A stretch of 64,000 nucleotides of DNA from Gammaproteobacteria bacterium (GTDB lineage Bacteria > Pseudomonadota > Gammaproteobacteria > Ga0077554 > Ga007554), in contig JAMPIW010000004.1 in assembly GCA_040183005.1 (NCBI GenBank), forward strand, positions 177,883 through 241,882, read 5' to 3'. The position numbers were made by a program, and so were the translations under genes. Position 1 is the stretch's first letter; each line of letters begins with the position of its first letter. The notes beneath the pieces are model-generated. The model saw only the letters and a program-made list of their open reading frames with translations, was not told the origin of the DNA and did no database searches. Shown here piece by piece: positions 12,701 through 55,078 of this stretch.

Positions 12701-13159
12701 CGCCAGCCAATCACTGATCTGCGTGTCGGCCGCTCCCAGCATCCCGCTTCTGGTGGCACTCGCACTTCCATGTGCATCGGCCGCTTCCGGCATCCTGCCT
12801 CTGGCGGCACTCGCACTTCCATGTGCATCGGCGGGGCTGGGCTTTGGAGCAGCGGGCGCTGGTGGTAGTGAGGGTTTTTGATGCAACGCATGTAGCAGCA
12901 CCGCCGCGACATGTTTGCAATTATTGCCGACGGGGCAACTACAATTTCCCCTGATGCGGGCATGGCCTGCTTGCCCGGCAATCTGCACTATTACCTTATA
13001 GGGTCTCCGCCCGCTGCCACGCACCAAGGCGGTCATCATGCTGCCATCTGCAGAAATCCCCAGTCCGGCCACACGTCCCTGATGTTCATAGGCGCTGCCG
13101 CGGGACAGATAGGCAAGGGGAATGGCGAGGTTTACGTCTTGAAGGTTGTATGACTGCAT
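9728..13159 (-). CDS. SWIM zinc finger and SNF2-family helicase
   Basis: 1143 residues. Near the N-terminus is a SWIM zinc-binding motif (CSCPVGNNCKHVAAVLLH). After a large middle region comes the SNF2 ATPase: DDMGLGKTVQTLAHLLL (Walker A), VILDEAQVIKN (DEAQ box), LTGTPMENHLGEMWSLLDF, and the helicase C lobe LLFSQFTGML ending in DRAHRIGQDKAVFVYKLI. It is an ATP-dependent nucleic-acid translocase; a role in transcription recycling or repair is only inferred from the family. Between the SWIM motif and the middle region it contains two consecutive 17-residue repeats (ADAHGSASAARGRMPEA and its variant) encoded by two copies of the 51-bp element at 12729-12830. It is monocistronic as far as can be seen. 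Confidence 0.92.
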   Translation of the reverse strand: MQSYNLQDVNLAIPLAYLSRGSAYEHQGRVAGLGISADGSMMTALVRGSGRRPYKVIVQIAGQAGHARIRGNCSCPVGNNCKHVAAVLLHALHQKPSLPPAPAAPKPSPADAHGSASAARGRMPEAADAHGSASATRSGMLGAADTQISDWLARMEQAMAPKSEPPVEIPERLLYLLSILENLRPPRLEVKLIATRLLKAGGYGKAKNLPSVAATSPPRYAAPADTAILRWLHVLNPFFAHSNSYRLEGADGERVLRDMLVTGRCHWREKDSAPLTLGEPRHGHIDWVMSADGTQRPHIAGVEGVVDAVLPLTPPWYLDLNSHQCGPLLTGLPDAIAAALLGAPAVTPEQALATREALKHHLPDLPALLPQTFAKVKRKTVKPTPCLRLFMQALEVRRQFQWQVEATHLNVELARLSFDYAGEIIPLGDKRTAITRVEDGELLRMARDEKAEKKALQRLKESGFAPVNDVPIFNVPPAHAFDMTISDDDRQAVLLDFSMNGVPALRKLGWKVEFAPDYGYRPVEDVGDWYADVEEGAGNDWFGLELGIMVDGKPLNLLPVLINMLHDFPDVMDLNALQNAPPNQSFIARLEDGRLLSLPIERVRNVLGTLIELYNKDLDKNGRLVLPAAQAGQLAELESLAGKNMEWQGGERLRELGQRLRDFKGIAEADLPTGLNAELRPYQKQGLNWLQFLRDYGLAGILADDMGLGKTVQTLAHLLLEKEGGRMDRPSLVIAPTSLMVNWRIEAERFAPSLKVLVLQGLERKQHFERLADFDVVLTTYPLLPRDQEVLLAQEYHLVILDEAQVIKNPKAKASQIVRQLKTRHRLCLTGTPMENHLGEMWSLLDFLMPGLLGNEKQFSKSFRTPIEKHGDATRRDILRRRIAPFMLRRTKQEVVKELPPKSEILRNVELAGAQRDLYESIRLAMHTKVRDEINKKGMARSQIIILDALLKLRQVCCDPRLVKLDSAKKVKHSAKLELLMEMLPEMVEEGRRILLFSQFTGMLALIEEELKQRKLDYVQLTGNTRDRATPVQRFQAGEVPLFLISLKAGGTGLNLTAADTVIHYDPWWNPAVENQATDRAHRIGQDKAVFVYKLITSGTVEEKILGLQARKKELADSLFDETAKSGPKLTLEDLNALFEPLG
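12729..12830 (-). repeat. Two tandem copies of the 51-bp in-frame element (SNF2 gene)
   Basis: Copies at 12780-12830 and 12729-12779, each exactly 51 bases and in the same orientation as the gene. Read on the minus strand each starts CGATGCACATGGAAGTGCGA and ends GCGGC. Hairpin 1 pairs GCAC with GTGC. Hairpin 2 has an outer stem GCCGC/GCGGC (GCCAC/GCGGC in the second copy) and an inner stem GGC-AGGAT-GCC (AGC-GGGAT-GCT in the second, a compensated change). They encode two 17-residue repeats, entering at codon position 3. The first copy (12780-12830) has no stop codon in any of the six frames. Confidence 0.9.
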
Positions 13160-13234: not shown

Positions 13235-13897
13235 TCACCGCCGCGCTGGCCGTTTGTTGAGTTTTCGTTGCAGTGTGCGGCGGTGCATGTCCAGGCGCCG
13301 CGCAGTGGCGGAGATGTTGCCCTGGCATTCCAGCAGCACCTTCTGGATATGCTCCCACTCCAGCCTGTCCACCGACAAGGGGTTTTCCGCAATGGCCATA
13401 CTCGCCTCGCCCGTCTCGCAGTGGAATGCCTGCACGATCTCATCGGCGTCGGCAGGCTTGGTGAGGTAGTGGGTCGCGCCCAGCTTGATGGCCTCCACGG
13501 CGGTGGCGATGCTGGCGTAGCCGGTGAGTACGACGATGCGGGTGTGGCTGTCGAGGGTCTTGAGCTTTTCCACCAGCACCAGGCCGGAAGGGCCGGGCAT
13601 GCGCAGGTCTATCACCGCGTATTCGGGCGGCCACTCCCGGCATCCTGCGCTGTCTATGGATGGACGACTGTCGCGAACGCGGGATGCGTTGGAGCGACCC
13701 TCCTGCGGCACTAGCACGTCCCTGTGCGTCGCATCGTCCTCAACCAAGCACAGCGCCTCATCGACGCTGTGTGCCAGTCGAACCGCAAAACCGCGTTTTA
13801 TTAATGCTTGCGACAACACCTGGCAAAAGGTCAGGTCATCATCCACCAGCAATAGACTGGGGCGGTTGTCTTCGGTTGCGTCGATCGTAAAAGTCAT
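13235..13897 (-). CDS. regA: RegA/PrrA/ActR-type redox response regulator with a 34-residue insertion
   Basis: 220 residues from ATG 13897, which overlaps the regB stop as ATGA; a longer frame to 13942 is less likely. The receiver has LLVDDDLTFCQVL, the phospho-acceptor Asp in YAVIDLRMPGPSG and the lysine in LTKPAD. The C-terminus is the Fis-like helix-turn-helix GNISATARRLDMHRRTLQRK typical of RegA. Family members are about 180-190 residues. The excess is explained by 34 residues (from THRDVL to CREWP) encoded by two nested 51-bp elements between EDDA and PEYAVID. Removing them restores EDDAPEYAVIDLRMPG. Whether the regulator still works with this loop beside the phosphorylation site cannot be told from sequence. 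Confidence 0.93.
   Translation of the reverse strand: MTFTIDATEDNRPSLLLVDDDLTFCQVLSQALIKRGFAVRLAHSVDEALCLVEDDATHRDVLVPQEGRSNASRVRDSRPSIDSAGCREWPPEYAVIDLRMPGPSGLVLVEKLKTLDSHTRIVVLTGYASIATAVEAIKLGATHYLTKPADADEIVQAFHCETGEASMAIAENPLSVDRLEWEHIQKVLLECQGNISATARRLDMHRRTLQRKLNKRPARR
13630..13731 (-). repeat. Outer 51-bp element in regA, split by an inverted inner copy
   Basis: The outer copy (gene orientation) occupies 13630-13647 plus 13699-13731. It is interrupted after GCAGGAGG by the inner copy. Joined, its stems are GCAC/GTGC (hairpin 1), GCCGC/GTGGC (outer stem of hairpin 2, one G-U pair) and GGC-AGGAT-GCC. The total insert is 102 bases, 2 x 51, and preserves the regA frame. The outer copy enters at codon position 2. 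Confidence 0.9.
13648..13698 (+). repeat. Inner, inverted 51-bp element nested in the regA copy
   Basis: On the plus strand it starts CGCTGTCTATGG and ends GGAGCGAC, 51 bases (ends ambiguous by one base). Hairpin 1 pairs GTC with GAC, the outer stem of hairpin 2 is GTCGC/GCGAC and the inner stem is AACGC-GGGAT-GCGTT. It lies opposite to the outer copy, so it is a second insertion event into an existing element. Five of its six frames are open; the one containing TAG is not used by regA. Confidence 0.9.
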
Positions 13898-35857: not shown

Positions 35858-35860
35858 AGC

Positions 35861-35894
35861 CCGGTAGGGTGGGCACGTTTTTTGTGCCCACGCG
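35861..35894. repeat. REP hairpin, type 1, left of RAYT copy 1
   Basis: A GTAG tetranucleotide (35864-35867) is followed by a stem formed from GTGGGCAC and GTGCCCAC around a T-rich loop. This is the classical REP layout recognised by REP-associated tyrosine transposases. Confidence 0.85.
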
Positions 35895-35931
35895 TAAAAT
35901 AAACCTTAACCCATGATGCAATGATGTCGTT

Positions 35932-36477
35932 ATGTCGCGCTATCGCCGAGCCAATACTGCGGGGGCCACTTATTTTTTCACGGTGGTGACGTATCGCCGC
36001 CAACCGATTTTGTGCGATACGCCGGTACGCACGGCGTTGCGAGACGCTATTGTTGCGGTGCGCGAACAACGGCCCTTTACGATTGATGCGTGGGTGCTGT
36101 TGCCAGATCATTTGCATTGTATTTGGACGTTACCGCCGGACGATGTCGATTTCCCTGTGCGTTGGAGCATGATCAAACGGCGGGTAAGCGTGGCGTGCGC
36201 CGCAGCGTATAAGCGCCCTGACTGGATTACCGCATCGAAACGTAAACATCGGGAATCGACGCTGTGGCAACGTCGTTACTGGGAACACCAAATCCGCGAT
36301 GAAACGGATTTTATACGGCATGTGGATTACACCCATTACAATCCGGTCAAACATGGGTTATGCCAACAGGTGGCGGAATGGCCCCATTCAACGTTTCACC
36401 GCCATGTTGCGCAAGGTGTCTATGCACTTGATTGGGGGGGTGTGGAGGCCGGGATGGGGGAAGCATTCGGTGAATGA
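35932..36477 (+). CDS. REP-associated tyrosine transposase (RAYT), copy 1
   Basis: 181 residues of the Y1/HUH transposase superfamily. YFFTVVTYRRQ starts the fold, DHLHCIWTLP holds the HUH metal-binding pair and DYTHYNPVKHGL holds the catalytic tyrosine region. These proteins cut and rejoin single-stranded REP hairpins. It is flanked by inverted type-1 REPs. Nearly identical copies lie at 38697 and 39301. This copy has Thr in DYTHYNP where the others have Ile. Its insertion separates a truncated DUF3304 gene from a truncated RHS gene. Confidence 0.92.
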   Translation: MSRYRRANTAGATYFFTVVTYRRQPILCDTPVRTALRDAIVAVREQRPFTIDAWVLLPDHLHCIWTLPPDDVDFPVRWSMIKRRVSVACAAAYKRPDWITASKRKHRESTLWQRRYWEHQIRDETDFIRHVDYTHYNPVKHGLCQQVAEWPHSTFHRHVAQGVYALDWGGVEAGMGEAFGE

Positions 36478-36485
36478 CATAACGG

Positions 36486-36514
36486 CGTGGGCACAAACTA
36501 CGTGCCCACCCTAC
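36486..36514. repeat. REP hairpin, type 1 (inverted), right of RAYT copy 1
   Basis: GTGGGCAC and GTGCCCAC form the stem and CTAC (the complement of GTAG) closes the element at 36511-36514. RHS coding sequence follows almost at once (GYTYDSLGN from about 36520). Confidence 0.85.
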
Positions 36515-38226
36515 TTGGCTATACCTACGACAGCCTCGGTAATCTCAAAAGTCGTGCCGACGCCATCAACAGCGTCACCGAAACCTTCGCCTATGACGCC
36601 CTCAACCGCCTGACCTCCGTCAGCGGCCCCGCGCCCAAGACCTACGCCTACGACAGCATCGGCAACATCACCAGCAAATCCGATATCGGCACCTACACCT
36701 ACGGCGCCAAACCCCACGCCGTCAGTACCACCGCCACGGCGGGCGTGGTCAACGCCAGCTATGGTTATGACGCCAACGGCAACATGACCAGTGCCAGCTA
36801 TGGCAACAACAATGGGCGGTATTTCACGTATACCAGCTTCAATAAAATAGGACAGTTCCAGCGGGCGGGCAGTGGCAGCGTAACTGGATACGTCTACGAC
36901 GCCTATCACGAGCGCATGGTGACATGTGGCTCTAACTCGGCATGTACGGTTTATCTCAATCCGTACCCGGGCGCGGGCACGTTCTACGAGAAAGTGTTAA
37001 ATACACACACCCACTACATCCATGCCGGCGCCACCCCGGTTGCCATCTATACCTTGGATATCACCAACCCCACCCCCGTGGTGCGCTACCTGCACAAAGA
37101 CCACCTCGGCTCCATCGACGCCATCACCAATGCAACCGGCGCCGTCGTCGAACGCTTCTCCTACGACGCCTTCGGCAAACTCCGCCTGACCAATGGCCAG
37201 GACAGCCCCTCACTGCTCAGCGCCAGCCGCGGCTATACCGGGCATGAACACTACTGGGGCGCGGGCCAGGGATTGATCAACATGAACGGGCGGGTCTACG
37301 ACCCCAGCCTCGCCCGCTTCACCAGCGCCGACCCGTACATCCACAACCCCAGCGACAGCCAGGAACTGAACCGCTACAGCTATGTCACCAATAATCCGTT
37401 GAAGTATACTGACCCGACGGGGTATAAGAAGGTTTGGCAGCAGAAGTGGTTTAGGGAGACGGTGAAGGTAGTGGTGGCGGTCGTGGCGGCGGCGTATACA
37501 GGAGGCGCGGCATATAGTGCATTTATGGGGTCTGCGATCAGCTCGGCAGGCGGTGCGATGGCGATAACGGGCGCTCAGTATGCGGCCGCCACCGCCTCGG
37601 CAACGATTGTGAGCGGCATGGCAAGCGGCGCGGTAGCGGGTGGCATCATGGGCAACGGTAGCCTCAAAGGCGCGGTGGGCGGGGCGACAACCGGGATGCT
37701 GTTCGGAGCGGTCAATGCTTCGGGCGTGTCTGGTTTCAGCAAGGTATTGGCTTCGGGGACGGTCGGAGGCATCACCACCGATGCGCAAGGCGGAAGATTT
37801 GAAGACGGGTTTAAGATGTCGGGTATTACCTCGTCTATGAATTGGGGGTATGAAAAGGCGGTGAATTTCGGGGCCAATCCGCTGCCCGGAGAAAATTTAC
37901 CGGGTGGGGCATACAGCACAGTAGATGCGCAAGGATTGCCTGCTGTTCCGCCAAGAACTAATGTGTTTGGCAAAAACGTGCCTTTGACAGGTGATTTCTG
38001 GACGGACTTTGATAAGCAGGGAGGGTTTCTCAGCAAGATCTTCAACTCCATCCCGACGATGAATCCAATTGCCGCGGGTCACGATCAAATTTTCAACAAG
38101 GGATGGTTACCTTTTAATACGTTTACCAATTACGGAACCATGTTGCCGGCGGCCGTCGTCACTTATGGTGCGCTACTTGATGGACCAATCGCGGTTCAGC
38201 TTGCGGTTGATCGATCCAAGGGATGA
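36487..38226 (+). CDS. RHS-repeat toxin protein, 5'-truncated, with core and C-terminal toxin region
   Basis: The frame starts with GTG inside the REP; true RHS sequence begins at GYTYDSLGNL and shows YD repeats (FAYDALNRLTSV, YAYDSIGNITSK, YGYDANGNMTS). The RHS core follows (KDHLGSIDAITNATGAVVER, then GLINMNGRVYDPSLARFTSADPYI and YSYVTNNPLKYTDPTG). The variable C-terminal domain after it is Gly/Ala-rich and hydrophobic, then ends with NPIAAGHDQIFNKGW and a hydrophobic tail; its activity is unknown. RHS proteins are normally much longer and are delivered by type VI or similar systems, so most of the N-terminus and the shell are missing. A candidate immunity gene follows. Confidence 0.88.
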   Translation: MGTNYVPTLLGYTYDSLGNLKSRADAINSVTETFAYDALNRLTSVSGPAPKTYAYDSIGNITSKSDIGTYTYGAKPHAVSTTATAGVVNASYGYDANGNMTSASYGNNNGRYFTYTSFNKIGQFQRAGSGSVTGYVYDAYHERMVTCGSNSACTVYLNPYPGAGTFYEKVLNTHTHYIHAGATPVAIYTLDITNPTPVVRYLHKDHLGSIDAITNATGAVVERFSYDAFGKLRLTNGQDSPSLLSASRGYTGHEHYWGAGQGLINMNGRVYDPSLARFTSADPYIHNPSDSQELNRYSYVTNNPLKYTDPTGYKKVWQQKWFRETVKVVVAVVAAAYTGGAAYSAFMGSAISSAGGAMAITGAQYAAATASATIVSGMASGAVAGGIMGNGSLKGAVGGATTGMLFGAVNASGVSGFSKVLASGTVGGITTDAQGGRFEDGFKMSGITSSMNWGYEKAVNFGANPLPGENLPGGAYSTVDAQGLPAVPPRTNVFGKNVPLTGDFWTDFDKQGGFLSKIFNSIPTMNPIAAGHDQIFNKGWLPFNTFTNYGTMLPAAVVTYGALLDGPIAVQLAVDRSKG

Positions 38227-38240
38227 GGAAGGTGCGTTTT

Positions 38241-38594
38241 ATGGAGTCCCGACCCAGAAACGTAAAGAATGGTCTGGCGATTTTTGGTGTTGCATCGACA
38301 TTCCTTCTGGCATGCACAACGATTACGCCGCACGAAAATTTCAAGGCGCACTTGAATGCCGCCTTGAGTCGTAGCGTTGATGTTGATCCTGCCCTGTCGC
38401 TGTGTTCACAGAAACAGAAGAATCTGATCGAAGAAAAACTTTTACCGAATGGAAACATGGAATCTAGACATTTTCTTCGTTATGGCTGGACTGGGGGAAT
38501 ATGTACCTATTTTTGTGAATTTGACTCGGTAACACGAAAAATTGTGCATGTGCGTTTCGAGGGTGTGGAAGAGAATTGCGGCATACCTCCGTAA
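38241..38594 (+). CDS. Candidate immunity lipoprotein for the RHS toxin tail
   Basis: 117 residues from the ATG at 38241, chosen because GGAAGG lies 8 bases upstream; ATG 38223 overlaps the RHS stop. NGLAIFGVASTFLLACTT contains a lipobox (LLAC), so the product is probably a lipoprotein in the periplasm or membrane. Four cysteines sit in the C-terminal half (GGICTYFCEFD, ENCG). I recognise no family. Position directly after an RHS C-terminus is the usual place for the cognate immunity gene; this is inference. Confidence 0.65.
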   Translation: MESRPRNVKNGLAIFGVASTFLLACTTITPHENFKAHLNAALSRSVDVDPALSLCSQKQKNLIEEKLLPNGNMESRHFLRYGWTGGICTYFCEFDSVTRKIVHVRFEGVEENCGIPP

Positions 38595-38625
38595 CACACA
38601 CACACAACGCGGTAAGCCCAGTAGC

Positions 38626-38659
38626 CCGGTAGGGTGGGCACGTTTTTTGTGCCCACGCG
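38626..38659. repeat. REP hairpin, type 1, left of RAYT copy 2
   Basis: Same sequence as the REP at 35861: GTAG, then GTGGGCAC/GTGCCCAC stem. A short CA repeat (around 38597-38606) precedes it. Confidence 0.85.
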
Positions 38660-38696
38660 TAAAATAAACCTTAACCCATGATGCAATGATGTCGTT

Positions 38697-39236
38697 ATGT
38701 CGCGCTATCGCCGAGCCAATACTGCGGGGGCCACTTATTTTTTCACGGTGGTGACGTATCGCCGCCAACCGATTTTGTGCGATACGCTGGTACGCACGGC
38801 GTTGCGAGACGCTATTGTTGCGGTGCGCGAACAACGGCCCTTTACGATTGATGCGTGGGTGCTGTTGCCAGATCATTTACATTGTATTTGGACGTTACCG
38901 CCGGACGATGTCGATTTCCCTGTGCGTTGGAGCATGATCAAACGGCGGGTAAGCGTGGCGTGCGCCGCAGCGTATAAGCGCCCTGACTGGATTACCGCAT
39001 CGAAACGTAAACATCGGGAATCGACGCTGTGGCAACGCCGTTACTGGGAACACCAAATCCGCGATGAAACGGATTTTATACGGCATGTGGATTACATCCA
39101 TTACAATCCGGTCAAACATGGGTTATGCCAACAGGTGGCGGAATGGCCCCATTCAACGTTTCACCGCCATGTTGCGCAAGGTGTCTATGCGCTTGATTGG
39201 GGAGGTGTGGAGGCCGGGATGGGGGAAGCCCGGTAG
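38697..39236 (+). CDS. RAYT transposase, copy 2
   Basis: 179 residues, almost identical to copy 1 with DHLHCIWTLP and DYIHYNPVKHGL intact. It differs by Leu for Pro in ILCDTLVRTAL. Its last codons run into the left REP of copy 3, so it ends in GMGEAR and its own right-hand REP is missing. The copies therefore look like a tandem array formed by recombination between blocks. Confidence 0.9.
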   Translation: MSRYRRANTAGATYFFTVVTYRRQPILCDTLVRTALRDAIVAVREQRPFTIDAWVLLPDHLHCIWTLPPDDVDFPVRWSMIKRRVSVACAAAYKRPDWITASKRKHRESTLWQRRYWEHQIRDETDFIRHVDYIHYNPVKHGLCQQVAEWPHSTFHRHVAQGVYALDWGGVEAGMGEAR

Positions 39237-39263
39237 GGTGGGCACGTTTTTTGTGCCCACGCG
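39230..39263. repeat. REP hairpin, type 1, between RAYT copies 2 and 3
   Basis: Identical to the REPs at 35861 and 38626. It overlaps the 3' end of RAYT copy 2. Confidence 0.85.
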
Positions 39264-39300
39264 TAAAATAAACCTTAACTCATAATGCAATGATGTCGTT

Positions 39301-39846
39301 ATGTCGCGCTATCGCCGAGCCAATACTGCGGGGGCCACTTATTTTTTCACGGTGGTGACGTATCGCCGCCAACCGATTTTGTGCGATACGCCGGTACGCA
39401 CGGCGTTGCGAGACGCTATTGTTGCGGTGCGCGAACAACGGCCCTTTACGATTGATGCGTGGGTGCTGTTGCCAGATCATTTGCATTGTATTTGGACGTT
39501 ACCGCCGGACGATGTCGATTTCCCTGTGCGTTGGAGCATGATCAAACGGCGGGTAAGCGTGGCGTGCGCCGCAGCGTATAAGCGCCCTGACTGGATTACC
39601 GCATCGAAACGTAAACATCGGGAATCGACGCTGTGGCAACGTCGTTACTGGGAACACCAAATCCGCGATGAAACGGATTTTATACGGCATGTGGATTACA
39701 TCCATTACAATCCGGTCAAACATGGGTTATGCCAACAGGTGGCGGAATGGCCCCATTCAACGTTTCACCGCCATGTTGCGCAAGGTGTCTATGCGCTTGA
39801 TTGGGGAGGTGTGGAGGCCGGGATGGGGGAAGCATTCGGTGAATGA
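39301..39846 (+). CDS. RAYT transposase, copy 3
   Basis: 181 residues; same protein as copy 1 apart from Ile in DYIHYNP. HUH and tyrosine motifs are intact. Nearly identical DNA including flanks indicates very recent duplication. The right-hand REP (39855-39883) is joined to a displaced toxin tail. Confidence 0.92.
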   Translation: MSRYRRANTAGATYFFTVVTYRRQPILCDTPVRTALRDAIVAVREQRPFTIDAWVLLPDHLHCIWTLPPDDVDFPVRWSMIKRRVSVACAAAYKRPDWITASKRKHRESTLWQRRYWEHQIRDETDFIRHVDYIHYNPVKHGLCQQVAEWPHSTFHRHVAQGVYALDWGGVEAGMGEAFGE

Positions 39847-39854
39847 CATAACGG

Positions 39855-39883
39855 CGTGGGCACAAACTACGTGCCCACCCTAC
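39855..39883. repeat. REP hairpin, type 1 (inverted), right of RAYT copy 3
   Basis: Same as 36486-36514, ending in CTAC. The shared CTTGGCT after it is the last sequence common to blocks 1 and 3. Confidence 0.85.
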
Positions 39884-39997
39884 TTGGCTTTATTTAATGT
39901 ATGGAGCATAAGCACGATGCTTCCGTCCGCCGCTTACGTTGCTATCGAGAAGAGTAACGGTGTCTGGTCTTTAAACCAGTACATAGGTGATCGTTAG
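39884..39997 (+). pseudogene. Orphan C-terminal tail of a second RHS toxin
   Basis: In frame through the REP from RAYT copy 3, the translation LFNVWSISTMLPSAAYVAIE to the stop at 39997 resembles the end of the RHS protein at 38226 (FTNYGTMLPAAVVTYGALLD). About 35 codons remain. A lipoprotein gene follows 30 bases later, as after the first tail. I take it as the leftover of a second toxin-immunity module. Confidence 0.5.
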
Positions 39998-40027
39998 TTG
40001 TAGTGCAGGCATCTTGGAGGGTATCGG

Positions 40028-40528
40028 ATGAAATTGACGTTGGTTTGGTGCGGGTTGAGAGAGGAAATAGGTGCTATCAACCGAGGTAACTTGCCATATG
40101 TCGGTTTAATAACATTCGCTGTTTTACTGGCAGGGTGCGCTGTTCCACGAGGCGGAGTACTAATACCACCGGTAGGATATACAGATGAACAACCGATCAA
40201 TGACCGGATCGAATGTAGCCATTGGGCGTCGAAATTGGCAATGGCCAAACTTCCATTGACTGATCAGGAAAACATGCGGGTAAATGGTGTAGAAACAGGT
40301 CGATTTTCTGAGGGGGGACGTGGCAGGAGTCTGTATTCTGATCGTCAGTTTTTATGCATGCTAGATCGTGATTATCAATATGTTGATTATCCCGCTAACT
40401 GGCTTCCAGAGTCTCGTTGTGAAGCTCTCAAATCATATAAATCTGGCGGCATAGATGAAAAGCGGTTGCGGTACATGTGTGAAAAATCACCTGAAAATCA
40501 CAAATGTGATGTGTGCCAAACGCGGTAA
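40028..40528 (+). CDS. Second candidate immunity lipoprotein
   Basis: 166 residues. GGAGGG lies 8 bases upstream of the ATG. YVGLITFAVLLAGCAVP contains a lipobox (LLAGC), unusually preceded by about 22 residues. The mature part has several cysteines (RIECSHWA, FLCMLD, SRCEAL, YMCEK, KCDVCQ). No family recognised. The location after an RHS tail suggests an immunity role by analogy. Confidence 0.6.
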   Translation: MKLTLVWCGLREEIGAINRGNLPYVGLITFAVLLAGCAVPRGGVLIPPVGYTDEQPINDRIECSHWASKLAMAKLPLTDQENMRVNGVETGRFSEGGRGRSLYSDRQFLCMLDRDYQYVDYPANWLPESRCEALKSYKSGGIDEKRLRYMCEKSPENHKCDVCQTR

Positions 40529-40566
40529 GTTGGGCTGGCAGGTTGGCGCTGAGCTTGCGAAGCAAG

Positions 40567-40600
40567 TAGCCTGGGTTGAGCGTTGTTGCGAAGCCCGGGA
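40567..40600. repeat. REP hairpin, type 2, left of RAYT copy 4
   Basis: GTAG (40567-40570) followed by CCTGGGTTGAGCGTTGTTGC and GAAGCCCGGG. Arms CCTGGGTT and AAGCCCGGG pair imperfectly. It differs in sequence from the type-1 REPs. Confidence 0.75.
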
Positions 40601-40643
40601 TAGTGGACTCGAATTGTCCCCATGTATTTGAATTGCTACTGTA

Positions 40644-41174
40644 ATGGTCGCCTATCGCCGTAACTTCATTCCTGGAGGAAGTTATTTTTTCACGGTGACG
40701 CTGCTGGATCGTGCATCGCGGTTGTTGATCGAACGCATCGACGAGTTGCGTGCTGCGTTTGTATCGGTACGGCTGGAACGTCCCTTTGAAATCGACGCTA
40801 TTGTGGTCTTACCTGATCATTTGCATTGCATCTGGACATTGCCGCCGGGCGATGCGGACTACGCTTTGCGGTGGCGTGAAATCAAATCACGCTTCTCGCG
40901 GCGTATTCCACTTGGTGAACGCCGCACTGCGGGACGAATGAACAAACGCGAACGCGGTGTGTGGCAACGCCGTTATTGGGAACACACGCTGCGCGACGAA
41001 CGGGACATGGCGCGGCATATCGACTATATCCATTACAACCCCATCAAACACGGCCATGTATCTTGTGCCGCCGACTGGCCATACTCCTCGTTTCACCGTT
41101 TTGTACAACGCGGGGTTTATCCTTTGGATTGGGGTATGGCCGATGAAATCAATCACGGAAAATTCGGGGAATGA
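40644..41174 (+). CDS. RAYT transposase, copy 4 (divergent type)
   Basis: 176 residues; MVAYRRNFIPGGSYFFTVTL opens the fold, DHLHCIWTLPPGDADYALRW holds the HUH motif and DYIHYNPIKHGHV the tyrosine. It is clearly a different RAYT from copies 1-3 and is flanked by its own inverted type-2 REPs (40567-40600 and 41187-41222), supporting the rule that each RAYT has its cognate REP. Confidence 0.92.
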   Translation: MVAYRRNFIPGGSYFFTVTLLDRASRLLIERIDELRAAFVSVRLERPFEIDAIVVLPDHLHCIWTLPPGDADYALRWREIKSRFSRRIPLGERRTAGRMNKRERGVWQRRYWEHTLRDERDMARHIDYIHYNPIKHGHVSCAADWPYSSFHRFVQRGVYPLDWGMADEINHGKFGE

Positions 41175-41186
41175 AGGTGCCTGCCG

Positions 41187-41222
41187 CCCCGGGTTTCGCA
41201 AACAACGCTCAACCCAGGCTAC
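41187..41222. repeat. REP hairpin, type 2 (inverted), right of RAYT copy 4
   Basis: CCCCGGGTTTCGCAAACAAC then GCTCAACCCAGGCTAC; CTAC is the complement of GTAG. It mirrors 40567-40600. Confidence 0.75.
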
Positions 41223-42082: not shown

Positions 42083-42529
42083 TGATGCGTGGGTGCTGCT
42101 GCCCGATCATTTGCATTGTATTTGGACATTACCGCCGGACGATGTCGATTTCCCTGTGCGTTGGAGCATAATCAAACGGCGGGTAAGCGTGGCGTGCGCT
42201 GCGGCGTATAAGCGCCCCGGCTGGATTACCGCCTCGAAACGTAAACGTATCGGGAATCGACACTGTGGCAACGCCGTTACTGGGAGCATACAGTGCGTGA
42301 CGAACGGGACATGGCGCGGCGTATCGACTATATCCATTAGCCGCTTCTGCACATCCTGCGCCCGCGACACTCGTGCATCCATGCACAGCGCAACCCCATC
42401 AAACACGGCCATGCATCTTGTGCCGCCGACTGGCCACATTCCTCGTTTCACCGCTTTGTACAACGCGGGGTTTATCCCTTGAATTGGGGTGTGACCGATG
42501 AAATCAATCACGGGAAATTCGGGGAATGA
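42083..42529 (+). pseudogene. RAYT transposase remnant, mosaic, frameshifted, with a 51-bp insertion
   Basis: The first half (to about 42260) matches RAYT copies 1-3 (DAWVLLPDHLHCIWTLP), and the second half matches copy 4 (RDERDMARRIDYIH, NPIKHGHASCAADWP). The N-terminal third is missing. Two extra bases around 42247 shift the frame. At 42340-42390 a 51-bp element interrupts the tyrosine motif between DYIH and NPIKHG. It cannot make an active protein. Confidence 0.88.
42340..42390 (-). repeat. 51-bp element inserted in the RAYT remnant (empty site known)
   Basis: The plus strand around the insertion is TATATCCATTA, then 51 bases, then CAACCCCATCAAACACGGCC. The intact paralogue at about 41023-41054 reads TATATCCATTACAACCCC with nothing between, so the insert is exactly 51 bases with no visible target duplication. 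On the minus strand it starts CGCTGTGCATGGATGCACGA. Hairpin 1 pairs GTGC/GCAC. Hairpin 2 pairs GTCGC/GCGGC (one G-U) and GCGC-AGGAT-GTGC. All six frames are open. Confidence 0.92.
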
Positions 42530-53659: not shown

Positions 53660-55078
53660 ATGCATATACATATCTTGGGAATCTGTGGCACGTTCATGGG
53701 TGGCATCGCCGTGCTGGCACGTCAGCTCGGTTATCGCGTCAGCGGTTCGGACGCCAATGTCTATCCGCCGATGAGCACGCAACTGGCGGAGCAAGGTATC
53801 GAGTTGATGGAGGGCTATGATCCTTCCCACCTCAATCCCGCGCCGGATTGTGTGGTGATCGGCAATGCCCTGTCGCGTGGCAATGCGGCAGTGGAATATG
53901 TGCTCAATCGCGGTCTGAATTACACCTCCGGCGCGGCATTTTTGTCCGAGCATGTGCTGCGATGTACAGGGAAGTACGAGTGTCGCGGGAGGCAGGATGC
54001 CGGGAGCGACCGTGACCGCTGGGTGCTGGCGGTGGCGGGCACGCACGGCAAGACCACCACCAGCACCATGCTTGCGTGGATACTTGAATATGCGGGACTC
54101 GCGCCAGGTTTTTTGATCGGCGGCGTGCCGTGCAACTTCGACATCTCGGCGCGGTTGGGCGACGCGCCGTTTTTTGTAGTGGAGGCGGATGAATATGACT
54201 CGGCGTTTTTCGACAAGCGTTCAAAATTCGTCCACTACCGTCCACGCACCTTGATCATGAATAATCTGGAGTTCGATCACGCCGACATTTTCCCTGATCT
54301 TGCGGCGATCAAGCGGCAGTTTCACCACCTAGTGCGCATCGTGCCGGGTAATGGGCTGATCATTGCCCCCGCTCAGGATGACAATCTGGCCGATGTGCTG
54401 GAACAGGGGTGCTGGACGCCAGTGGAATATTTCGGTGACGAAACTGAAAACACACCGGGCTGGAGCGCCCGCAACGAGGCGGTGGACGGTGGCGAATTTG
54501 ATGTATATTGGGGCGATGATCGCGTCGGGCGGGTCGTCTGGCCACTGCTCGGGCGGCATAATATGCACAATGCCCTGGCGGCCATTGCCGCAGCGCGCCA
54601 TGCCGGCGTGATGCCGCAGCATGCCGTGGCGGCGCTGGCGGAATTTCGAGGGGTGAAGCGCCGCATGGAACAGCGCGCGGTGGTGGATGGCGTGACGGTA
54701 TACGATGACTTCGCGCATCACCCCACGGCGATTGCCACCACGCTGGAGGGGCTGCGCAAACGGGTAGGTGCGGCGCGCATCATCGCCGTGCTGGAACCGC
54801 GCTCCAACACCATGCGCATGGGCGTGCATCAACAGACGCTCGCCCCGTCACTGGCACTGGCCGATGAAGTGATTCTGTATCAGCCCGCTGATATCGGCTG
54901 GGATGTGGCAGCAGTTGCAGCAAGCATCGGTCCGCGTGCCGCAGTATTCGACACCGTGCCCGCCATCGTGGCGCATGTGGCACGGCTGGCGCGGCCGGGC
55001 GATCAGGTGCTAATCATGAGCAATGGCGGTTTCGGTGGGATACACACCCAATTGATTGAGGCCTTGCAAGCCAGATGA
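53660..55078 (+). CDS. mpl: UDP-MurNAc-tripeptide ligase Mpl with a 17-residue insertion
   Basis: 472 residues. The Mur ligase layout is intact: MHIHILGICGTFMGG, VAGTHGKTTT (ATP loop), VVEADEYDSAFFDKRSKFVH, YDDFAHHPTAI and LEPRSNTMRMG. It recycles cell-wall tripeptide by joining it to UDP-MurNAc. Between EHVL and RDRWVLAVAGTHGKTTT lie 17 extra residues (RCTGKYECRGRQDAGSD) encoded by the 51-bp element at 53960-54010, at the boundary of the UDP-binding and ATP-binding domains. The stop overlaps ubiX (ATGA). Confidence 0.96.
   Translation: MHIHILGICGTFMGGIAVLARQLGYRVSGSDANVYPPMSTQLAEQGIELMEGYDPSHLNPAPDCVVIGNALSRGNAAVEYVLNRGLNYTSGAAFLSEHVLRCTGKYECRGRQDAGSDRDRWVLAVAGTHGKTTTSTMLAWILEYAGLAPGFLIGGVPCNFDISARLGDAPFFVVEADEYDSAFFDKRSKFVHYRPRTLIMNNLEFDHADIFPDLAAIKRQFHHLVRIVPGNGLIIAPAQDDNLADVLEQGCWTPVEYFGDETENTPGWSARNEAVDGGEFDVYWGDDRVGRVVWPLLGRHNMHNALAAIAAARHAGVMPQHAVAALAEFRGVKRRMEQRAVVDGVTVYDDFAHHPTAIATTLEGLRKRVGAARIIAVLEPRSNTMRMGVHQQTLAPSLALADEVILYQPADIGWDVAAVAASIGPRAAVFDTVPAIVAHVARLARPGDQVLIMSNGGFGGIHTQLIEALQAR
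53960..54010 (+). repeat. 51-bp in-frame element in mpl
   Basis: Starts CGATGTACAGGGAAGTACGA and ends GGGAGCGAC; downstream CGTGACCGC continues the normal gene, so excision would restore EHVLRDRW exactly. Hairpin 1 pairs GTAC with GTAC; hairpin 2 has outer stem GTCGC/GCGAC and inner stem GGC-AGGAT-GCC separated by GGGA on both sides. It enters at codon position 1. All six frames are open. Confidence 0.92.

What the first reader, a model, noticed from the sequence alone, without database searches (positions are those of the whole stretch)
53960..54010. A 51-bp structured element inserted in frame in the peptidoglycan-recycling ligase Mpl
Excising exactly 51 bases restores the standard Mpl sequence (EHVL joined to RDRWVLAVAGTHGKTT). 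The insert adds 17 residues between two domains, has no stop codon in any of six frames, and folds into the same two hairpins as the copies in regA, the SNF2 gene and a RAYT remnant. The family (six copies seen in this 64-kb window) has a fixed length divisible by three and conserved RNA/DNA structure with covariation: hairpin-1 stems GTAC/GTAC, GCAC/GTGC, GTGC/GCAC, GTC/GAC; hairpin-2 outer stems GTCGC/GCGAC versus GCCGC/GCGGC; inner stems GGC/GCC, AGC/GCT, AACGC/GCGTT around a loop RGGAT. Selection or a mobility mechanism acts on the nucleic acid rather than the peptide. The closest known analogue is the Rickettsia palindromic element, which differs in sequence, length and host.
Basis: partly seen in the sequence, partly recalled or inferred. 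Interest (0 to 1): 0.95.

Follow-up and report, generated by a model that had tools for sequence, protein, structure and literature searches.

The report
Hairpin element hopping into housekeeping genes
A 51-base DNA element made of two hairpins sits, without shifting the reading frame, inside the cell-wall recycling gene mpl and inside many other housekeeping genes of related bacteria; it is likely a tiny parasite moved by an enzyme not yet identified, and it is predicted to be translated as 17 extra amino acids.

Summary
Confirmed. Window 53960-54010 is a 51-bp insertion in mpl; three same-genus genomes have the clean empty site. Its family has at least 49 copies in this genome and matches in 70 of 321 sampled genomes of the class. 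Copies with unlike junction bases fix the ends: 51 bp gained, no target duplication. The unit is two abutting hairpins, one closed by a newly found covarying pair. Of 115 strong copies, 85 lie in long ORFs, in both orientations and several frames; 46 of 50 ORFs scanned hit Pfam, SMC, TrmD, RecG and tRNA synthetases among them. The kind (in-frame palindromes: Rickettsia RPE, intragenic REPs) is known; this family turned up in none of my paper searches nor in Rfam. It differs by its two-hairpin 51-bp unit, no GTAG tag, no avoidance of genes, no RAYT flanking, and wide spread. Best explanation: a non-autonomous element moved as hairpin DNA by a transposase in trans (inferred; enzyme unidentified) and translated through. 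Hairpin 1 also matches CsrA/RsmE sites (ANGGAN loop, 113 of 115), an untested second function.

The parts
53660..55078 (+). mpl, 472 aa with the insert
   Evidence: ORF; 15 Mpl relatives aligned, 72-97% identical in the alignment; orthologues in G001-G003 in open frames of 455-456 aa
53960..54010 (+). the 51-bp inserted element, read as 17 residues RCTGKYECRGRQDAGSD
   Evidence: empty sites in congeners; ends fixed on other copies; cmsearch 79.5 bits
53960..53980 (+). hairpin 1: closing pair 53960/53980, stem 53964-53967 with 53974-53977, six-base loop 53968-53973 (AGGGAA)
   Evidence: covariation; stem in folding (the closing pair is not in the predicted fold)
53982..54010 (+). hairpin 2: stem 53982-53986 with 54006-54010, inner stem 53991-53993 with 53999-54001, loop AGGAT
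   Evidence: covariation; folding
12729..12830 (-). two head-to-tail copies, period 51 bp
   Evidence: model hits 12728-12780 and 12779-12831 (the second)
13629..13732 (-). copy split by a nested insertion of 51 bp
   Evidence: 104-bp model match
13648..13698 (+). the nested copy, opposite orientation
   Evidence: model hit 13647-13699, 38.4 bits
42339..42391 (-). diverged copy inside a RAYT remnant
   Evidence: 46.7 bits; sequence
35968..41036 (+). four Y1_Tnp (RAYT-type) genes at 35968, 38733, 39337 and 40710; the last has the diverged copy at 42339 about 1.3 kb away
   Evidence: PF01797; element search of their loci

Best explanation
The 51-bp block in mpl is one copy of a dispersed two-hairpin element that entered by precise insertion without target duplication, likely carried as single-stranded hairpin DNA by a transposase supplied in trans, and likely tolerated because it would add exactly 17 translated codons. 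Shown: precise 51-bp gains, no target duplication, nested and tandem copies, strong covariation of two abutting hairpins, copies in both orientations and several frames inside conserved genes. Inferred: a Y1/HUH-like (IS200/IS605/RAYT-like) transposase cuts at the foot of each hairpin (at the sites where the ends could be fixed they fall on the terminal bases of hairpins 1 and 2) and rejoins the strand at sites biased to T-S before a C. Inferred: insertions into genes persist when they bring no stop codon, and the ribosome reads through them. Unknown: the enzyme.
For: Ten sites with the insert in one genome and 0 bp left over in another, measured from flank alignments (mpl, L286, L250, L237, L218, L019/L158, L235:3794, L248:2843, L161, nested L255). 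Ends: L286 against three genomes, and L250 against the two same-genus ones, fit only model positions 2-52; for L250 the two more distant genomes fit either reading. Seven outer copies split by a nested one measure 104 bp = 53+51; others measure 101, 102 or 105 bp and were not looked into. Tandem pairs of period 51. Base after the insertion: C 108, T 6, A 1 of 115; T two bases before it in 65 of 115. Covariation of 7-18, 8-17, 25-51, 26-50 and the new 2-22 found without a structure. Non-Watson-Crick stem pairs on the element strand: G.T 30, A.C 4, other 6; in antisense copies G.T 9, A.C 3, other 3, although their gene mRNA carries the other strand, which favours a DNA-level strand. Genes not avoided: 76.5% of 115 copies in ORFs of 200 aa or more against 70.7% of 1140 random positions. 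Frames able to hold the TAG are rare: 2 of 51 sense, 1 of 34 antisense. AlphaFold (16-row alignment) leaves residues 104-118, most of the insert, below pLDDT 50, between helix 91-100 and strand 121-127.
Against: No transposase found: Y1_Tnp (PF01797) has no match in 3 of the 18 copy-rich genomes I chose (G105, 73% complete; G244, 99%; G294, 93%), and G305 shows only a fragment. Of 44 distinct RAYT loci searched (34; 10 new, whose other 6 were repeats) 5 hold a copy (two of them the same weak place), never on both sides as in a REPtron. In nine shared-site pairs compared cleanly, elements differ less than flanks (20 changes against about 44 expected; one pair identical over 51 bp with flanks 76-81% alike), which selfish decay does not predict; the sample is biased to high-scoring copies. 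Of 29 sites of the own genome, 11 had both flanks in the fetched part of G003: 3 empty, 1 with 3 bp left, 2 with the same element, 1 with another 51 bp, 4 with longer occupants. My ORF criterion itself excludes copies with a stop, so the frame counts are partly circular; in the rivals. No peptide shows translation.
Confidence: 0.6

Rival explanations
1. The element persists because its RNA binds CsrA/RsmA: both hairpins carry CsrA-type loops, so each sense copy is predicted to be a two-site CsrA target.
For: Hairpin 1 is a 4-bp stem with an ANGGAN hexaloop in 113 of 115 copies, GGA in 115 and a C-G closing pair in 115 of 115; hairpin 2 reads CAGGA(T/A/C)G in 94 of 115. A CsrA review gives RUACARGGAUGU, six-base loops, four or fewer contiguous pairs, ANGGAN and CAGGA(U/A/C)G as binding features (PMC7652899, passages). 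csrA matches in 25 of 27 genomes checked. The SMC-gene pair L227/L246 shows a C-G to T-A double change at a shared site.
Against: 34 of 85 intragenic copies are antisense, where the mRNA lacks the loops; the sense excess is weak (p 0.08) and copies are not gathered at gene starts; the strand bias of wobble pairs holds in antisense copies. csrA is near-universal in those checked, copy-free genomes included, so its presence says little; the two misses are G105 (73% complete, with copies) and G025 (0.4 Mb, copy-free). The likeness was noticed after the fact. The element has no Rfam match at threshold.
Confidence: 0.2
2. Mobile DNA moved by a different, non-HUH mechanism (for example through RNA and reverse transcription, or repair-coupled copying of hairpins).
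For: Copy-rich genomes without a PF01797 match; no RAYT flanking; exact ends at hairpin feet.
Against: No reverse transcriptase or other enzyme was sought; ssDNA transposition explains the lack of target duplication and nested insertion equally well.
Confidence: 0.25
3. An RNA-level intron or ribosome-bypass element, removed or skipped in expression.
For: Copies sit inside conserved domains: in 27 of 50 scanned ORFs the best Pfam stretch runs across the insertion (my reading).
Against: Length is 51, and the longer occupants of four compared sites are 63, 84, 93 and 162 bp, all multiples of three; frames with a possible stop are depleted. Of the 30 copies outside my intragenic set, leaving out the 51 bp opens a longer ORF through the site in three: L272 at 2751, L255, and L273 four residues from a gene end. 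A removed element would need neither fixed length nor open frames.
Confidence: 0.04
4. An old conserved peptide segment or functional linker of Mpl.
For: It lies between two domains of Mpl in the model.
Against: Absent in three congeners and 13 of 15 aligned relatives; the same DNA unit lies in unrelated genes in other frames.
Confidence: 0.01

Closest known systems
Rickettsia palindromic elements (RPE; Ogata 2000, as told in PMC2229807, passages)
   Same: palindromic repeats found in frame inside conserved protein genes; that review says a gmk product with the insert keeps enzyme activity
   Different: 105-146 bp in that review; Rickettsia; ours is 51 bp, two abutting hairpins; no RPE sequence was compared here
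GTAG and CGTC REPs, some intragenic (PMC3733652, parts 1-5 of 8 read; its figures with the consensus sequences are not held)
   Same: short hairpin repeats with covarying stems, some inside DNA repair and tRNA synthetase genes; RPE-4 and RPE-6 are counted there as CGTC REPs
   Different: described as mostly extragenic, with a GTAG or CGTC tag; here no GTAG at either end, 5' CGTC in only 4 of 115 copies, two hairpins, and genes not avoided
IS200/IS605 and RAYT (TnpA-REP) ssDNA transposition (mechanism recalled; search listing only)
   Same: hairpin substrates, no target duplication, short target preference
   Different: no associated Y1 transposase found; ends at the hairpin feet; no guide sequences identified
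Enterobacterial RU-1/2/3 MITE-like repeats inside genes (PMC2759123, abstract and outline)
   Same: small mobile repeats with open frames, found in annotated gene loci
   Different: 103-168 bp and present in multiple intergenic regions according to that abstract
CsrA/RsmE binding hairpins (PMC7652899, passages)
   Same: short stem with ANGGAN loop; CAGGAUG
   Different: those are regulatory sites; here dispersed mobile copies, 34 of 85 intragenic ones antisense

Membership tests
In-frame palindromic elements (RPE-like kind) | palindromic repeat inserted in frame in several unrelated conserved genes | tested here: met
   46 of 50 scanned ORFs with Pfam hits; empty sites
Rickettsia RPE family proper | RPE sequence | not tested
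   no RPE sequence was fetched or compared
GTAG REP | GTAG (or GYRG-type) tag at one end | tested here: not met
   the unit begins mostly CGAC, CGCC, CGAT or CGCT and ends mostly GAC or GGC
GTAG REP | flanks a RAYT gene | tested here: not met
   5 of 44 distinct RAYT loci hold a copy, none on both sides
CGTC REP | CGTC tag, 8-9 bp stem, loop of 4-5, unpaired tail | tested here: not met
   5' CGTC in 4 of 115; stem of 4 bp
REP in general | predominantly extragenic | tested here: not met
   76.5% of 115 copies in long ORFs, random positions 70.7%
IS200/IS605-derived element | no target duplication | tested here: met
IS200/IS605-derived element | fixed target next to one end | tested here: inconclusive
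   C after the site in 108 of 115, T in 6, A in 1; may partly come from tandem neighbours
IS200/IS605-derived element | Y1 transposase in the host | tested here: inconclusive
   15 of 18 copy-rich genomes match PF01797; G105, G244 and G294 do not
CsrA binding site | GGA in a hairpin hexaloop, ANGGAN | tested here: met
   113 of 115
CsrA binding site | binding by CsrA | not testable with these tools
   needs protein and RNA
Known Rfam RNA | match to a family | tested here: not met
   no gathering match at the element; three sub-threshold matches near it, two wholly outside and one overlapping 8 bases

The most novel reading that the evidence does not exclude
A widespread mobile element of only 51 nt, both ends of which are hairpin feet, moved by an enzyme outside the known REP/RAYT pairs, that spreads a ready-made two-site CsrA binding cassette through the coding interior of essential genes.
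Probability: 0.15. Interest if true: 0.95.

Novelty: new variant of a known kind. Interest (0 to 1): 0.8.

Why it matters
In-frame palindromic repeats are best known from Rickettsia, and PMC3733652 describes REPs as mostly extragenic. Here a family shows 17 to 133 model matches a genome in seven of eight relatives, most of the 115 copies looked at lie in ORFs, and 70 of 321 sampled genomes of the class have a match. That makes three open questions testable with laboratory enzymes: what moves a 51-nt element, how core proteins absorb 17 foreign residues, and whether hairpin loops shaped like CsrA sites are used or coincidental.

Tried and rejected
Conserved Mpl segment: rejected. RAYT of the window as the mover: not supported; the window RAYTs carry, by eye, their own GTAG-type ends and the remnant is itself interrupted. 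Insertion unit = model positions 3-53: held for a while from the tandem period, rejected by the empty sites of L286 and L250; earlier scripts used that frame, one base off, which changes no length. Phage or plasmid carrier: two exact-pattern scans of viral contigs found nothing; the phage collection gave one 28-base partial match, the plasmids one copy in a Lonsdalea primase gene. Known RNA family: none. Papers: the motif letters occur in 98 papers, of which the 20 listed are by title on unrelated subjects; searches on in-frame palindromes and REPs returned the papers cited, and a search joining CsrA with REP or GGA motif listed CsrA papers only in the 15 of 127 shown. 'Not described' rests on these searches and on Rfam only; the REP consensus figures of PMC3733652 are not held, so its 28 families were not compared letter by letter.

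Limits. Rows dropped: of 127 model hits in 80 regions I kept 96 strong full-length ones, leaving out the weaker ones and a 54-nt copy, and added 19 of the own genome's 49 (the model-building set): 115. All are strong copies from eight genomes. For the sum 20 against 44 I left out two misaligned pairs (L261/L273, L005/L273) and one duplicate (L261/L025) of 12. Alignment A5 holds 84 chosen copies. Genome searches score only 150 or 18 candidates a genome, so copy numbers are lower bounds. 'Longest ORF' can pick a wrong strand in GC-rich DNA; Pfam settled 46 of the 50 ORFs scanned, of 85; L228, L231, L232 and L014 had no hit. Shuffles and mutual information do not correct for shared ancestry of copies.

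Full report
What is there. mpl (53660-55078) holds 51 extra bases at 53960-54010, read in frame as 17 residues. Same-genus genomes G001, G002 and G003 have Mpl frames of 455-456 aa without them and DNA that joins without loss or gain. Among 15 database relatives aligned, the nearest (97%) has the same insert, the next (95% in the alignment) does not, and P0004 has a different insert at the same junction. Named relatives of the protein are gammaproteobacterial MAGs, which is why I call the hosts gammaproteobacteria; the genomes themselves are unnamed.

The family. A first blastn of the own genome (3.33 Mb, 9 contigs) gave 22 matches. A covariance model from 19 copies gave 49 matches at E<=0.001 there, 17 to 133 in six of the seven other genomes of the family and 1 in the seventh, G005, and 13 of 37 genomes overall; in a wider draw 70 of 321 genomes of the class, 57 of 243 genera. 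All counts are lower bounds because only 150 or 18 candidates a genome were scored. In 82 fetched loci of named records the model matches at E<=0.001 in three: a Lonsdalea populi plasmid, a Gammaproteobacteria MAG (L040) and Sedimenticola hydrogenitrophicus (L051).

Ends and insertion. Tandem copies have period 51 (12728/12779 here; one pair at C9 has 54), and seven outer copies split by a nested one measure 104 bp, 53+51; others measure 101, 102 or 105. In most copies both junction bases are C, which leaves the ends open by a base. L286 and L250 have T on the right. L286's empty sites in three congeners read GA/TTGC, which only positions 2-52 explain; L250's in the two same-genus genomes read CG/TGA, likewise; in the two more distant ones CG/CGAT fits either reading. 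No bases of target are doubled. Across 115 copies the base after the site is C in 108, T in 6, A in 1, and T stands two bases before it in 65; part of this may come from tandem neighbours, since the right flank beyond it also resembles the element's start.

Structure. On 84 aligned copies (82 distinct) 99.6% of cells pair and 9 of 13 pairs show double changes; no shuffle of 500 does as well and no slid version exceeds 46.6%. Mutual information over all column pairs, without a structure, ranks 8-17, 7-18, 25-51, 2-22, 4-20 and 26-50 highest; 4-20, with 5-20 next, is not in my structure and may be a further contact. Pair 2-22 (C-G in 78, T-A in 4) is new and makes hairpin 1 run from the first base of the unit; hairpin 2 ends at its last base. 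RNAalifold, unguided, gives the other 12 pairs but not 2-22. The mpl copy folds better than all 200 shuffles as RNA (z -3.3) and than 197 of 200 as DNA (z -2.6).

Where it sits. 85 of 115 copies are in ORFs of at least 200 aa with 25 aa on both sides: 51 sense (31, 18 and 2 by frame) and 34 antisense (18, 15, 1). Random positions in the same loci fall in ORFs about as often (70.7% of 1140 against 76.5%, with 20 aa on each side), so genes are not avoided, unlike REPs as described in PMC3733652. I scanned 50 of the 85 ORFs; 46 hit Pfam, among them SMC, valyl-, phenylalanyl- (beta), glutamyl-type and glycyl- (beta) tRNA synthetase, TrmD, UvrD, RecG, SdhA-type flavoprotein, GcvT, chorismate-binding, glucokinase and pantothenate kinase families; in 27 the best stretch runs across the insertion, in the others it lies beside it or is split. 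That many of these genes are essential is recalled knowledge. Outside the family, in G119 (1.4 Mb) and five other genomes, 15 of 23 copies lie in ORFs of 200 aa or more with 19 aa or more on each side, my count; these were not scanned with Pfam.

Mechanism. The two frames in which the unit can carry TAG are nearly unused (2 of 51; 1 of 34), as expected if the insert is translated, with the caution that the ORF criterion excludes stops; of the 30 copies outside it, three would open a longer ORF without the element. Longer occupants of four compared sites are 63, 84, 93 and 162 bp. Non-standard stem pairs on the element strand are G.T 30, A.C 4, other 6; in antisense copies 9, 3 and 3. The model that found the copies slightly favours G.U, so this is supportive only. 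It points to the element's own strand, whatever the gene's direction, which fits single-stranded DNA transposition better than an mRNA function. No mover was found: PF01797 has no match in 3 of 18 copy-rich genomes, and 5 of 44 RAYT loci hold a copy, none on both sides.

CsrA. Hairpin 1 is a 4-bp stem with ANGGAN loop in 113 of 115 copies and hairpin 2 shows CAGGA(T/A/C)G in 94, the features a review gives for CsrA/RsmE sites. The match was noticed after the fact; orientation and position of copies do not support a regulatory role in the genes, so I keep it as a rival and a cheap test.

Verdict. A real, large, mostly intragenic mobile-element family of a known kind in a new form and host range; mover unknown.

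Noticed in passing
window 35860-41200: Four Y1_Tnp genes, three near-identical by eye, bounded by inverted ends containing GTAGGGTGGGCACG, amid what look like YD-repeat genes (not tested).
   Followed up: partly
L163 (own genome) against L369 (G003): The same site in a chorismate-binding (trpE-like) gene holds the 51-bp unit in one species and a 93-bp relative in the congener; other sites hold 63, 84 or 162 bp.
   Followed up: partly
L245:2001-2053 and L275:2001-2053: RecG of two genera carries an identical 51-bp copy at the same site although flanks are only 76-81% alike: strong constraint, conversion, or insertion twice at one site.
   Followed up: partly
L382:11756-11808, L382:12063-12115, L237:1606-1658, L245:675-727: A subfamily with the loops exchanged: hairpin 1 has CAGGATG, hairpin 2 mostly CAGGGATG.
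   Followed up: no
right flanks of L231, L239, L247, L248, L279, L290: What looks like a partial extra hairpin 1 follows the unit, as if a third hairpin or truncated tandem copy.
   Followed up: no
L366:3658-3758, L403:10875-10975, L419:10181-10281, L386:3960-4060, L417:9061-9161: Split or enlarged copies of 101 bp in G003, a second recurrent length besides 104.
   Followed up: no
L214:3583-3635: Copy of the family in a DNA primase gene of an 11-kb Lonsdalea populi plasmid.
   Followed up: partly
P0004 and P0009: Mpl relatives with other inserts: one at the same junction, one that by eye is an antisense reading of the element elsewhere plus a C-terminal one.
   Followed up: partly
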